Assembly (NCBI RefSeq): GCF_000422305.1
Contig: NZ_AULN01000012.1
Location: 207,001 to 271,000 of the forward strand
Direction: 5' to 3'
From: Luteimonas mephitis DSM 12574
GTDB lineage: Bacteria; Pseudomonadota; Gammaproteobacteria; Xanthomonadales; Xanthomonadaceae
Length of the DNA stretch: 64,000 bases
Part shown: piece by piece, positions 9,693-20,438 of the stretch
Numbering within the stretch: the stretch's first letter is position 1
How the letters are laid out: each line of letters begins with the position of its first letter
Notes under the pieces: generated by a model
The model's database searches: none
Seen by the model: only the letters and a program-made list of their open reading frames with translations
What the model was told of the DNA's origin: nothing
Position numbers and translations under genes: made by a program

Positions 9693-10268
9693 TCACGGCG
9701 CCACGATCACCGTGATCGCCTCCACCTGTTGCACCCAGCGCGCAGGACGCGCTTCGCCAGGCACGACCAGCCGCAGCGGCCCCGTGTCATCGCCCAGCGC
9801 CTTGCCATCGCAGCGATCGACGACGAACGCGCTGCGGTTGCCCAGCGTCGGATCGAACTCGGCGAGCGCGAACAGCGCGCGATAGCCGTCGCGGCTGTCG
9901 ACCTGCACGTAACGGCCCAGCTGCGCGCCGCGCAGCGGCTCGGCAGGCATCGCGCCGGCAGCCTGCATCAAAGCGGCGAGCGCGACGCCTTCGCACCGCA
10001 GCGCTTCGCCGTGCGCAGCGGCGTCGACTGTCGTGCGCGGCAGCGCGGCGAGGGTGGCGGCATCGAGCGGCACCACCACCGGCGAGGGCAGCGCCGGCGC
10101 CTGCGGCGGCGCGGCGTGCAGGTGCGGGTCGTGGGTCGACGGTGCGGCGGTCGCATCGGTCGTCGGCGGCCCTGGCGGCGGGGATGGGACGGTGCGCGGC
10201 GGCCCGTGGCTGGCGCAGGCCGACAGCAGCAGCGCAGCGAACAGCGGCAGGGGTCGGGGCGCGGTCAT
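9693..10268 (-). CDS. Lipoprotein with molybdopterin-oxidoreductase-like (sulfite-oxidase fold) domain
   Basis: A 191-residue protein. Residues 1-17 form a lipoprotein signal with lipobox LSAC, then a Pro-rich linker. The C-terminal 120 residues follow the minimal PF00174 pattern: GVALAALMQAAGA, VDSRDGYRALFALAEFDP, and GPLRLVVPGEARPARWVQQV. The cofactor-ligating Cys of catalytic sulfite oxidases is not seen in its usual context, so it may be a non-catalytic or electron-partner form. Its ATG overlaps the YeeE stop (ATGA), and modABC lie just downstream, which suggests a molybdenum link. Function is inference. Confidence 0.72.
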   Translation of the reverse strand: MTAPRPLPLFAALLLSACASHGPPRTVPSPPPGPPTTDATAAPSTHDPHLHAAPPQAPALPSPVVVPLDAATLAALPRTTVDAAAHGEALRCEGVALAALMQAAGAMPAEPLRGAQLGRYVQVDSRDGYRALFALAEFDPTLGNRSAFVVDRCDGKALGDDTGPLRLVVPGEARPARWVQQVEAITVIVAP

Positions 10269-10774
10269 GGCCGCGCCGGCAGCAGGCGAACCAGCCAGGA
10301 ACCCGCCAGCAGCGCGAGGACGAACACGATCGCTTCCCCGCTGCCGCGCGCGAGGTTGGCCAACGCCGGCCCGGGACAGTAGCCGGCGAGCCCCCAGCCG
10401 GCCCCGAACAATGCGCTGCCCGCGAGCAGGCGCCAGTCGATGCGCGTCGCGGGCGCGTCGCAGGGCTGCGCCCGCGCGCGTCGCCGCACCCACGCGAAGC
10501 CCGGCAAGGTCACCGCCAGCGCGCCGCCCATGACCAGTGCCAGCGACGGATCCCAGTGGCCGGACACGTCGAGGAAGTTGAGCACCTTGTCGGGATCGGT
10601 CATCTCCGGCAGCGCCAGCAGCCGCCACGCGCGCCCGTCGCGCTGCTCGATGCCGGCGTTGAGGATGCCGCTTATGCCGGCGATGCGGCCGATGCCGGCG
10701 TACAGCAGCACGGCTGCCGCGCCGATCGCGATGCCGCCCAGTGCCGCACTGACCGGGGTGAATGTCGTCTGCAT
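10265..10774 (-). CDS. YeeE/YedE-family sulfur transporter
   Basis: A 169-residue membrane protein of the YeeE/YedE (PmpA/TsuA-like) group, implicated in moving thiosulfate or related sulfur compounds. The N-terminal half has the GIGRIAGISGIL helix; the second half has the DUF6691 words TDPDKVLNFLDVSGHWDPSL and GLAGYCPGPALANLA, the latter with a Cys in the pore-type motif. It thus joins elements that are often found on two separate proteins. Start MQTTFTPVSA chosen. It lies four nucleotides downstream of the hydrolase gene and belongs to the same leftward operon, as in BigR operons of Xylella and Agrobacterium. Confidence 0.85.
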   Translation of the reverse strand: MQTTFTPVSAALGGIAIGAAAVLLYAGIGRIAGISGILNAGIEQRDGRAWRLLALPEMTDPDKVLNFLDVSGHWDPSLALVMGGALAVTLPGFAWVRRRARAQPCDAPATRIDWRLLAGSALFGAGWGLAGYCPGPALANLARGSGEAIVFVLALLAGSWLVRLLPARP

Positions 10775-10778
10775 GGAA

Positions 10779-18670: not shown

Positions 18671-19294
18671 ATGAATCAGTCCCATGCCGACCTGATCCAG
18701 CCCTCCGCCGCCGTCATCACCGCCGCCGCGCCCCGGCGCCGCGCGAACACGCGCGCGTTTGCGGCGGTGGTCCGCGCAACCCGCAGGTGGCCCGCGCATT
18801 GGATTGCGATCGCTTCGCTGGCGTTGCTCGCTGGATGTGCGTCGGTCGCGCCGACGACCATGGCGCCCGGCGTGGAGCTGATCGAGGCGTTGCCGGGGCT
18901 ATACACGTCCGGCCAGCCCGCGCCCGGCGACTGGAATGCGATCGCGGCCAACGGCATCGCCACGGTCGTCAACTTGCGGACCACGGAGGAACTGGCCGGG
19001 CGCGACGAAGCCGCCGAGGTGCGCGCAGCGGGGCTGCGCTACGTCCAGATCCCGGTCGCCGGTGCGGACGGCATCACCGCCGACAACGCCCGCCGGCTGC
19101 ACGATGCGCTGTCGCCCGACCACGGCCAGGTGCTGGTGCACTGCGCCAGCGGCAACCGCGCCGGCGCGCTGCTGGCGCTGGAACAGGCGGAATTCCATGG
19201 CGTGCCGGCGGACGCGACGCTGGCACTGGGCCGCAAGGCGGGGATGACCAGCACCGAGCCCCGGCTCAGGCAGGCGCTGGGCATCGACCCATAG
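18671..19294 (+). CDS. DUF442/BLH-type phosphatase-like predicted lipoprotein
   Basis: A 207-residue protein. A membrane anchor ends in a lipobox (LLAGC, Cys56). The rest matches the TIGR01244/DUF442 group: GLYTSGQPAPGDWNAIAANG, then the tyrosine-phosphatase loop HCASGNR at 157-163. In Xylella-type Blh proteins this domain is fused to the persulfide dioxygenase; here the two are on separate genes in opposite operons. The 40 residues before the anchor are unusual; GTG codons at 18767 or 18770 would give a normal-length signal. Enzyme activity of this domain, whether phosphatase or sulfurtransferase-like, is not settled. Confidence 0.82.
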   Translation: MNQSHADLIQPSAAVITAAAPRRRANTRAFAAVVRATRRWPAHWIAIASLALLAGCASVAPTTMAPGVELIEALPGLYTSGQPAPGDWNAIAANGIATVVNLRTTEELAGRDEAAEVRAAGLRYVQIPVAGADGITADNARRLHDALSPDHGQVLVHCASGNRAGALLALEQAEFHGVPADATLALGRKAGMTSTEPRLRQALGIDP

Positions 19295-19304
19295 GAGGCG
19301 CGAC

Positions 19305-20438
19305 ATGGACAATGCACGGATCACCGTCGTCGGGGCCGGGTTTGCGGGCCTGACCGCACTGCGCACCCTGCGCGGGCAGGCGCCCGCTGCCCGGCTGACC
19401 CTGGTGGCGCCGGTCCCCGAACTGCAGTACCTGCCGGGGACCATCTGGCTTCCCTCGGGCAAGCGCCGGAGCGAGGACCTGGTGGTGCCGCTGGACGGCT
19501 TCCTGCGCCGCGAAGGCATGGCGTTCCATGCCGCCCGCGCCACCGGGCTGTCGGACGACGGCCGCCGGCTGCGCACCGAGGCCGGCGACGTGGAAAACGA
19601 CGGCCTGGTCATCGCCTCCGGCGCGCGCTACCTGCGCAAGCTGCCGGGCATCGAGCACGCCATCATTCCGTGCGAAGGCGTGGCGGCAGGCGAGGCGATC
19701 CGCGACCGGCTGGCGGCGCTCGACGGCGGCACCCTGTGTTTCGGCTTCGGCAGCAATCCGAACGAGCCGATCGCGATGCGCGGCGGGCCGGTGTTCGAAT
19801 TCGTGTTCGGCATCGACACCCTGCTGCGCAAGCAGCGCCGCCGGGAAAGGTTCCGCCTGGTGTTCTTCAGTCCCTCGCAGACACCGGGGCAGCGGCTGGG
19901 CGAGCGCGCGGTGGGGATGATCCTCGGGCAAATGCGCAAGCGCGGCATCGACACCGTGCTGGGCGAAAAACCGCAGCGCTTCGAGGCCGGCGCGGTGCAG
20001 CTGGAGCGCAGCCGCATCGACAGCGACCTGATCGTGTTCATGCCCGGGCTGACCGGCCAGGCCTGGCTGGACGACACCCCGTTGCCGCGCTCGCCGGGCG
20101 GCTTCGTGCAAGGCGAGGCCAGCTGCCGCGTGCCCGGCTTCGCCCGCACCTATGTCGCCGGCGACGGCGGCAGCTTCCCGGGGCCGGACTGGATGCCCAA
20201 GCAGGCGCACCAGGCCGACCTGCAGGCCGAGGTGGCCGCCCGCAACCTGCTGCGTGAACTGCGCGGCGAGCCGGCGCAGGAAACCTTCCGCAGCGAACTG
20301 GCGTGCATCGTCGATTCGCTCGACCGCGGCATGCTGGTGACCCGCCGGGAAGGCGGCAGCCGCGCCCTGCCGCCGCTGCGGGTGATGCATTGGGCCAAGG
20401 TCGTATTCGAGAAGCGCTACCTGCGCCGATACCGCTGA
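19305..20438 (+). CDS. Second SQR-like FAD oxidoreductase
   Basis: A 377-residue flavoprotein of the NDH-2/SQR superfamily. GAGFAGLTALR (10-20) binds FAD; YVAGDGGSFPGPDWMPKQAHQA near 283-304 is the second FAD and quinone-side region. It has C123, C145 and C334, a spacing parallel to the SQR triad, with the third in LACIVDSLDRG. It is shorter than the first SQR. It begins ten bases after the DUF442 gene and closes the operon. It may be a second sulfide or polysulfide dehydrogenase type; the substrate is inferred from context. Confidence 0.82.
   Translation: MDNARITVVGAGFAGLTALRTLRGQAPAARLTLVAPVPELQYLPGTIWLPSGKRRSEDLVVPLDGFLRREGMAFHAARATGLSDDGRRLRTEAGDVENDGLVIASGARYLRKLPGIEHAIIPCEGVAAGEAIRDRLAALDGGTLCFGFGSNPNEPIAMRGGPVFEFVFGIDTLLRKQRRRERFRLVFFSPSQTPGQRLGERAVGMILGQMRKRGIDTVLGEKPQRFEAGAVQLERSRIDSDLIVFMPGLTGQAWLDDTPLPRSPGGFVQGEASCRVPGFARTYVAGDGGSFPGPDWMPKQAHQADLQAEVAARNLLRELRGEPAQETFRSELACIVDSLDRGMLVTRREGGSRALPPLRVMHWAKVVFEKRYLRRYR

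What the first reader, a model, noticed from the sequence alone, without database searches (positions are those of the whole stretch)
9693..20438. Divergent BigR-controlled sulfide locus that joins SQR and persulfide dioxygenase to an RND exporter
Around one AT-rich dyad lie, leftward, a rhodanese remnant, BigR-like repressor, persulfide-dioxygenase-like enzyme, YeeE transporter and Mo-oxidoreductase-like lipoprotein, and rightward, SQR, DUF2892, RND adaptor and permease, Trx2, DUF442 protein and a second SQR. Start-stop overlaps link many of them. Known BigR operons contain the hydrolase and YeeE genes. A complete RND adaptor/permease translated together with SQR and thioredoxin is not part of the classic system as I know it. 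This suggests envelope export of a sulfide-oxidation product (for example polysulfide or glutathione persulfide), or of a toxin made during sulfide stress.
Basis: partly seen in the sequence, partly recalled or inferred. Interest (0 to 1): 0.82.

Follow-up and report, generated by a model that had tools for sequence, protein, structure and literature searches.

The report
Sulfide-sensor-controlled locus with export pump
A bacterial gene cluster that looks built to detoxify hydrogen sulfide also carries a membrane export pump, and relatives of this pump in many other bacteria have a very similar DNA switch in front of them, which suggests, but does not prove, that the pump throws out a sulfur product.

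Summary
The locus is real. Leftward from an AT-rich dyad lie a truncated rhodanese, a two-cysteine ArsR repressor (HlyU/BigR/SqrR group), a dioxygenase-like enzyme, a DUF6691/YeeE protein and a lipoprotein. Rightward lie type I SQR, a YgaP-type membrane protein, RND adaptor and permease, Trx2, DUF442 and a divergent SQR. It is not private: 11 of 239 other loci have SQR-DUF2892-adaptor-RND in that order, and in the window's genus pump and SQR occur in the same 5 of 25 genomes. New here: the dyad AtATTAGN6CTAATaT, learned at divergent sulfide promoters, also precedes 54 of 93 related pump operons without sulfide genes nearby (11 of 1920 shuffles; 0 of 29 in a sister clade; 0 of 7 other RND operons of this genome). 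That suggests a sulfane-sulfur regulon reaching pumps far from SQR, but which protein binds there is open: in 21 such genomes the two-cysteine ArsR found elsewhere carries the dyad itself in only 8, and rarely where the pump does. One 2025 paper already mentions RND pumps beside such regulators. The cargo is untested; export of zero-valent sulfur is my leading guess.

The parts
9693..10268 (-). small lipoprotein with weak similarity to the molybdopterin-oxidoreductase domain (PF00174, below cut-off)
   Evidence: lipobox read by eye
10265..10774 (-). YeeE/PmpB-like membrane protein (DUF6691, PF20398, 120 bits)
10779..11666 (-). persulfide-dioxygenase-like metallo-beta-lactamase-fold protein; aligns to the dioxygenase half of Blh (NF040641) and to solved 9g8t/4ysk/4efz
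   Evidence: run from 11669, one codon early; start codon GTG 11666
11663..11980 (-). two-cysteine (C33, C99) ArsR repressor of the HlyU/BigR/SqrR group
11980..12174 (-). rhodanese remnant (64 aa, no Pfam match; a relative, L250, has a longer rhodanese gene in this place)
12213..12241 (+). operator-promoter candidate: TTGACA 12213-12218, 17-base spacer, TAATGT 12236-12241, overlapped by the dyad ATATAAGAAATAACTAATGT at 12222-12241
12284..13606 (+). type I sulfide:quinone reductase, SQR1, with the three cysteines aligned to the A. ferrooxidans enzyme
13603..13830 (+). YgaP-type membrane protein (DUF2892, PF11127)
13836..14912 (+). RND periplasmic adaptor (MFP), lipobox-like segment by eye
   Evidence: (TIGR01730 191.9 bits, cut-off 94.9)
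14905..18162 (+). RND permease, 1085 aa; TM4 Asp pair D425/D426; Arg988 at the AcrB Lys940 position as in MexK
   Evidence: AcrB numbering recalled
18159..18596 (+). thioredoxin 2 (TrxC type) with zinc ribbon and WCGPC
18671..19294 (+). DUF442 sulfurtransferase-like protein with HCx5R motif behind a lipobox-like segment
19305..20438 (+). divergent SQR-family flavoprotein, SQR2, with conserved C123, C274, C334

Best explanation
This is a sulfide/sulfane-sulfur stress locus controlled by one two-cysteine ArsR repressor. At rest the repressor sits on the dyad at 12222-12241, which overlaps the rightward promoter; when persulfides bridge its two cysteines it lets go (reported for relatives, inferred here). 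Rightward expression makes SQR, a YgaP-type membrane protein, the RND adaptor and permease and Trx2 from overlapping or abutting genes, then DUF442 and SQR2. Leftward expression makes the dioxygenase and a YeeE-type transporter. SQR turns sulfide into sulfane sulfur; the dioxygenase oxidises part of it; Trx2 and DUF442 move or reduce it; the RND pump, using a shared TolC-type channel, most likely throws zero-valent sulfur (polysulfide, sulfur rings or small-thiol persulfides) out of the inner membrane or periplasm. Shown here: gene content, conserved residues, overlaps, recurrence, and the dyad in cis and in front of many unlinked pump operons. Inferred: regulation and, more weakly, cargo. The figure below is for the whole and was lowered from 0.55 for the same reason.
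For: Partners recur: of 80 named loci 37 have ArsR, 51 DUF2892, 22 SQR1 within 4.5 kb; of 12 loci of same-genus and same-order relatives 11, 9 and 6; of 7 regions around other RND genes of this genome none. Order SQR1-DUF2892-MFP-RND in 11 of 239 other loci, 6 of them with Trx2 next. MFP-SQR1-RND, the SQR gene between adaptor and permease, in L043, L067, L081. Same genus: pump in 5 of 25 genomes and SQR1 in the same 5. Dyad: best EM score 388 (60 starts) against mean 185, sd 6.2, max 198 in 40 local-shuffle sets (30 starts each). A matrix from 24 other divergent loci hits 55 of 96 unlinked pump operons at score 10 or more (54 of 93 after removing near-identical loci), against 11 of 1920 shuffles, 3 of 2125 other tiles, 0 of 29 in clade B (L232 counted as B after the tree). 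The exact dyad is in 71 of 274 genomes, its reversed control in 5. 68 of 71 pump-bearing genomes have an ArsR match (71 of the 75 such genomes were given); in the 30 best loci 29 keep both cysteines and 23 have rhodanese, glutaredoxin or Trx2 beside; 13 of 30 have the dyad, 0 of 30 shuffled. ATT-N10-AAT geometry equals the ATTC-N8-GAAT reported for SqrR and seen at YgaV (passage).
Against: No transport or expression data. In the even class sample only 13 of 71 pump loci have ArsR, DUF2892 or SQR1 nearby, and 19 of 55 evaluable unlinked ones lack the dyad. In 21 unlinked genomes whose best ArsR locus was fetched, that locus carries the dyad in 3 of 12 with a pump dyad but 5 of 8 without one (1 not evaluable), so that ArsR need not be the pump's regulator. 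A TolC-containing group lacks the dyad: found at 2 of 19 scanned TolC genes and 1 of 18 unlinked loci of L171-L193. Co-occurrence with SQR (44 of 75 vs 31 of 198) is not corrected for kinship, and genomes with only clade B co-occur too (13 of 25 vs 62 of 248). Only 5 of 30 exact-dyad sites had a neighbour recognised by my HMMs.
Confidence: 0.5

Rival explanations
1. The pump is in the sulfane-sulfur regulon but its cargo is not sulfur: it removes lipids, quinone or thiol adducts, or other toxic compounds that build up when sulfide blocks respiration or persulfides attack the envelope.
For: Permease is HAE-like and among solved structures nearest to 8gjj and MexK; it meets no named pump's NCBIfam cut-off, so cargo cannot be read from sequence. 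The probable V. cholerae counterpart VexLM had no substrate among the antimicrobials tested (passages), which fits narrow cargo of any kind.
Against: SQR inside the adaptor-permease pair in three loci and the company of rhodanese, glutaredoxin and Trx2 in L050, L051 and L056 point to sulfur handling rather than general envelope repair.
Confidence: 0.35
2. The dyad in front of the unlinked pump operons belongs to another regulator, for example a LysR-type one encoded beside many of them, not to the two-cysteine ArsR; the pump then joins the sulfide regulon only where it is linked.
For: A LysR gene accompanies 31 of 100 loci L100-L199; the dyad also fits the loose T-N11-A rule for LysR boxes (recalled); it is commoner with LysR (21 of 30) than without (18 of 46, p 0.01); and the ArsR loci of such genomes often lack it just where the pump has it.
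Against: The matrix was learned only at divergent ArsR-type promoters; 18 of 46 loci without that LysR still have the dyad; it is upstream of 0 of 31 of these LysR genes; 8 of 21 unlinked genomes do have it at the ArsR locus.
Confidence: 0.22
3. The pump genes only hitch-hike in a mobile sulfide island and have no joint function.
For: Patchy within the genus (5 of 25); the linked state needs at least 22 changes on the pump tree.
Against: Several different gene orders with the same partners, SQR inserted inside the pump pair, and the dyad in front of unlinked pumps.
Confidence: 0.05

Closest known systems
bigR operon of Xylella fastidiosa / Agrobacterium (BigR, Blh, TauE-type transporter)
   Same: Two-cysteine ArsR repressor beside a persulfide dioxygenase and a sulfur-compound membrane protein; DUF442 sulfurtransferase present (PMC5823870, passages).
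   Different: Blh is one DUF442-dioxygenase protein there; here they are two separate proteins, DUF442 with a lipobox-like segment. Here SQR, YgaP-TM, an RND pump and Trx2 are added, and the transporter is DUF6691/YeeE, not TauE.
RND pumps next to sulfane-sulfur ArsR regulators, noted in PMC12423496 section 2.1
   Same: The authors list RND efflux pumps among the membrane proteins encoded near two-cysteine sHdrR/SoxR/BigR-type regulators and call them shown or likely to transport sulfur compounds (section read).
   Different: Part of one sentence, resting on Figure S2 and Table S1, which I could not open; searches of its main text showed no operator motif or pump analysis.
SqrR (Rhodobacter), YgaV (E. 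coli), HlyU (Vibrio) operators
   Same: ATTC-N8-GAAT (PMC9774250, passage) has the same ATT-N10-AAT spacing; YgaV likewise binds over its promoter.
   Different: Here the fourth base is A, giving ATTAGN6CTAAT. The HlyU site TAATTCAGACTAAATTA (PMC4330345, passage) has similar half-sites at another spacing.
VexLM of Vibrio cholerae
   Same: A V. cholerae permease (P0123) is 99% identical to the permease piece in V. metoecus L084, which lies after an ArsR and two YeeE-type genes; vexLM lies on the small chromosome and has no known substrate (passages).
   Different: That P0123 is VexM is my inference (locus tags recalled). My HMMs and Pfam saw no SQR in the part of L084 examined; a FAD-rhodanese fusion stands there. 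The reported effect of losing VexF and/or VexM is lower virulence-factor output (passages), not sulfide sensitivity, which those passages do not mention.
MexK (MexJK)
   Same: With 8gjj among the nearest solved permeases (232 and 233 bits); Arg at the AcrB Lys940 position.
   Different: Far below family level; MexJK is a drug pump without sulfide genes (recalled).

Membership tests
Two-cysteine sulfane-sulfur ArsR regulators (BigR/SqrR/HlyU/YgaV) | ArsR fold with two conserved cysteines (Cys50/Cys116 of sHdrR) | tested here: met
   C33 and C99, aligned to HlyU cysteines
Two-cysteine sulfane-sulfur ArsR regulators (BigR/SqrR/HlyU/YgaV) | NCBIfam BigR equivalog score | tested here: not met
   100.8 bits, cut-off 155: group member, not BigR proper
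Two-cysteine sulfane-sulfur ArsR regulators (BigR/SqrR/HlyU/YgaV) | palindromic operator over the own or divergent promoter | tested here: met
   for this window, by sequence only
Two-cysteine sulfane-sulfur ArsR regulators (BigR/SqrR/HlyU/YgaV) | tetrasulfide/disulfide formation and DNA release with persulfide | not testable with these tools
   needs protein
Sulfane-sulfur regulon, unlinked pumps | pump dyad and ArsR-locus dyad in the same genome | tested here: inconclusive
   both in 3 of 20 evaluable genomes, pump only 9, ArsR only 5, neither 3
bigR operon (Xylella type) | Blh, a DUF442-dioxygenase fusion | tested here: not met
   dioxygenase half only at 10779-11666; DUF442 separate at 18671-19294
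Type I sulfide:quinone reductase | three active-site cysteines as in the A. ferrooxidans enzyme | tested here: met
   C128, C160, C354 align with 3sz0 cysteines
Proton-driven RND (HAE) pump | TM4 Asp pair | tested here: met
   D425, D426
Proton-driven RND (HAE) pump | Lys940 equivalent | tested here: not met
   Arg988, as in MexK; a variant seen in a solved pump
Named multidrug RND pumps | NCBIfam family cut-offs | tested here: not met
   best NF033617 469 of 1250 bits
Tripartite efflux system | outer-membrane factor in the operon | tested here: not met
   none in cluster; 12 OEP domain matches in the genome, two of them in one frame at C2:93061-94263, not beside an RND match
Persulfide dioxygenase | activity on glutathione persulfide | not testable with these tools
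   similarity only

The most novel reading that the evidence does not exclude
The pump is the founding example of a dedicated envelope exporter of zero-valent sulfur: an RND subfamily, found in about a quarter of sampled gammaproteobacterial genomes (76 of 274, own genome included), that drains SQR-made polysulfide or sulfur rings from membrane and periplasm, and that in many genomes is switched on by a sulfane-sulfur repressor even where its genes lie far from SQR; orphan pumps such as VexLM would belong to it.
Probability: 0.3. Interest if true: 0.85.

Novelty: new variant of a known kind. Interest (0 to 1): 0.6.

Why it matters
Bacteria that oxidise sulfide make reactive zero-valent sulfur, and how it leaves the cell is, to my knowledge, poorly understood. 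A widespread uncharacterised pump with a sulfane-sulfur-type operator in front of it, next to SQR or far from it, makes that question testable by one gene deletion. It also offers a physiological role for RND pumps that have no known drug substrate.

Tried and rejected
Considered and rejected: (1) 'private to this genome' - refuted. (2) 'The pump is always in a sulfide locus' - refuted by the even class sample, where most loci show only adaptor and permease to my HMMs. (3) Genome co-occurrence with SQR as main evidence - kept only as support, because genomes with only clade B co-occur as well. (4) First dyad search over all 41 divergent regions mixed two motif types (several Burkholderiales ones differ); I then restricted learning to 25 loci picked by eye, a choice that helps the fit; the test on 96 unlinked loci not used for learning is the fair one. 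(5) Promoter/terminator scan: 0 promoters against 0.6 expected, 4 terminators against 3.4; not informative. (6) Exact-dyad neighbours: most are not recognisable sulfide genes. (7) Structure prediction was not run: it would not settle the cargo.

PMC12423496: section 2.1 read, passages otherwise. PMC10509353, PMC10225521, PMC3364225, PMC8875612, PMC5823870, PMC9774250, PMC4330345: passages only. PMC1951920 and PMC3138302 are not held, so the original BigR operator could not be compared. Supplements were not open to me.

Dropped rows and biases: L247 (the window's own genome) left out of counts; L073 and L084 left out of the tree (short permease pieces); loci with under 400 bases upstream of the adaptor match left out of the dyad scan (55 of 58 unlinked class-sample loci were evaluable). 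The 80 named loci are the best 80 of at least 595 by similarity, hence biased to near relatives. Named and unnamed sets share a few genomes; six near-identical pairs were found and the main count redone without them. The 30 ArsR loci are the best-scoring ones, 9 from genomes with a linked pump.
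Full report
What is there. The window lies in a 3.4 Mb genome scored 100 percent complete whose nearest pump relatives are Lysobacteraceae/Luteimonas-type bacteria. Leftward: rhodanese remnant, two-cysteine ArsR, metallo-beta-lactamase-fold dioxygenase matching only the second half of Blh, DUF6691/YeeE protein, small lipoprotein. 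Rightward: SQR1, YgaP-type membrane protein, adaptor, permease, Trx2, DUF442, SQR2. SQR1 aligns over its length with the A. ferrooxidans SQR and keeps its three active-site cysteines. SQR2 is far more distant (60 bits) but has cysteines 123, 274 and 334 conserved in 8, 7 and 7 of 8 SQR2-like rows. The repressor has C33 and C99 and is nearest HlyU among solved structures, then 6o8k (SqrR, from recall) and the biofilm repressor 3pqj. The permease has the TM4 aspartate pair and Arg in place of AcrB Lys940, as MexK.

Is the neighbourhood more than chance? Around the pump, ArsR, DUF2892 and SQR1 lie within 4.5 kb in 37, 51 and 22 of 80 named loci, and in 11, 9 and 6 of 12 loci of relatives; none lies in 7 regions around other RND genes of this genome, which hold 13 of the 14 other RND match rows. 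Of 239 other loci, 11 have SQR1-DUF2892-MFP-RND in that order on one strand, 6 of them with Trx2 next; in L043, L067 and L081 the SQR gene sits between adaptor and permease. Within the window's genus the pump is in 5 of 25 genomes at 1e-250 and SQR1 in exactly the same 5 at 1e-80 (Fisher 1.9e-5), as if gained or lost as a block.

The less favourable sample. In 274 gammaproteobacterial genomes drawn evenly, 101 have a match at 1e-250 or better, 76 of them, own genome included, of the close type (about 54 percent identity or more). Of 71 fetched loci of this type, 14 have ArsR, DUF2892, SQR or a dioxygenase nearby, 13 if only ArsR, DUF2892 and SQR1 count. A FastTree pump tree of 238 rows needs at least 22 changes of the linked state. 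Linked rows fill most of the Lysobacterales, Burkholderiales and Thiobacillus/Accumulibacter parts and a separate group outside the class (7 of 8 of L231, L233-L239, probably Alphaproteobacteria); Chromatiales such as Thiocapsa, Allochromatium and Thioalkalivibrio are mostly unlinked. SQR1 is still commoner in genomes with the close-type pump (44 of 75 against 31 of 198), without correction for kinship; genomes with only clade B show it too (13 of 25 against 62 of 248).

The operator. Divergent ArsR-type regions share a 20-base dyad, AtATTAGctATagCTAATaT. On 25 loci picked by eye from 41, the best palindromic EM score is 388 (60 starts) against a mean of 185 (sd 6.2, maximum 198) in 40 sets of local shuffles (30 starts each). 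With the window left out of learning, its best site is this dyad with 18.1; 0 of 2000 shuffles and 0 of 373 other tiles of the window reach that. In the window it spans 12222-12241, between and over TTGACA (12213-12218) and TAATGT (12236-12241); a TTGACA-like hexamer (4 of 6 or more) at the same offset is kept in 8 of 25 loci.

The matrix from the 24 other loci was then run upstream of adaptors in loci not used for learning. Unlinked close-type pumps: 55 of 96 score 10 or more, against 11 of 1920 local shuffles and 3 of 2125 other tiles of the same loci; 54 of 93 without near-identical loci. Linked: 16 of 58. Clade B: 0 of 29 (L232 counted here, as the tree places it). L231 and L233-L239: 3 of 8. 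Other RND operons of this genome: 0 of 7. In the class sample alone 36 of 55 evaluable unlinked loci have it. Exact ATATTAGN6CTAATAT occurs in 71 of 274 genomes and its reversed control in 5, counted by eye from the table. Of 71 genomes with the close-type pump (of 75; four were not given), 68 have an ArsR match at 1e-10. In the 30 best ArsR loci, 29 keep both cysteines and 23 have rhodanese, glutaredoxin or Trx2 beside; 13 of 30 carry the dyad, at or near the ArsR start by my reading, against 0 of 30 shuffled. The spacing, ATT-N10-AAT, is that of the SqrR/YgaV site ATTC-N8-GAAT (PMC9774250, passage).

Limits of the operator result. Of those 30 ArsR loci, 21 are from genomes with an unlinked pump. 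There the ArsR locus has the dyad in 3 of 12 genomes whose pump has it, and in 5 of 8 whose pump lacks it: the best-matching ArsR is thus not plainly the pump's regulator. Loci with a LysR gene have the dyad more often (21 of 30 against 18 of 46), though the dyad lies upstream of 0 of 31 of those LysR genes. A group with TolC in the operon has it in only 2 of 19. Of 30 loci around exact dyads, 5 showed a neighbour recognised by my HMMs: adaptor/permease twice, rhodanese twice, DUF2892 once. So the pump often, not always, has this dyad; the dyad is not confined to sulfide genes; and its binding protein at unlinked pumps is open.

How it most likely works. Persulfide or polysulfide releases the repressor (reported for relatives; inferred here). 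SQR and probably SQR2 oxidise sulfide to sulfane sulfur; the dioxygenase oxidises part of it; Trx2 and DUF442 shuttle it. The pump takes cargo from membrane or periplasm and needs an outer channel; an outer-membrane factor frame at C2:93061-94263, not beside any RND match, could serve. I favour zero-valent sulfur as cargo because of SQR inside the pump pair and of the rhodanese-glutaredoxin-thioredoxin company in some loci, but no result here tests cargo.

Compared with what is known. The Xylella operon as described has no pump. Li et al. 2025 state that two-cysteine ArsR regulators appear to act on RND efflux pumps, among others, that are shown or likely to transport sulfur compounds (PMC12423496 section 2.1, read). 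I found no functional study of such a pump in ten searches of one open-access library. The probable V. cholerae counterpart, VexLM, has no known substrate (PMC10225521, passages); that identity is my inference from V. metoecus L084 and P0123.

Verdict. Observation confirmed; interpretation partly supported. New variant of a known kind: a sulfane-sulfur locus with an RND pump as recurring member in cis, and a shared dyad that suggests the same in trans.

Noticed in passing
7254-9622 (-): Molybdate-type ABC transporter genes (solute-binding protein 8786-9622 and permease from 7883 by Pfam; ATPase by eye) directly downstream of the leftward operon and its weakly Mo-oxidoreductase-like lipoprotein.
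   Followed up: partly
35336-38356 (+): A second RND permease (28% identity to the first) in the same window, without sulfide genes nearby or the dyad upstream (L240).
   Followed up: partly
L084:9364-13153: In this Vibrio metoecus strain adaptor and permease reading frames look interrupted, though neighbouring ArsR and YeeE frames are open; intact permease copies exist in relatives.
   Followed up: no
L171-L193: A group outside the class in which many loci have TolC-adaptor-permease and almost no dyad upstream; possibly a different role.
   Followed up: partly
L200-L230, L232 (clade B): Sister pump clade: almost no sulfide genes nearby and no dyad, often a ParA-like protein and a secreted-looking protein downstream (by eye), yet its genomes co-occur with SQR.
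   Followed up: no
L020, L021, L022, L026, L088, L095: Genes that look by eye like a cytochrome bd subunit lie within 7 kb of the pump in 6 named loci; bd is a sulfide-tolerant oxidase (recalled).
   Followed up: no
L050, L051, L056: Thiobacillus/Hydrogenophilales loci have the order ArsR-MFP-RND-DUF2892-rhodanese-glutaredoxin-Trx2 on one strand.
   Followed up: yes
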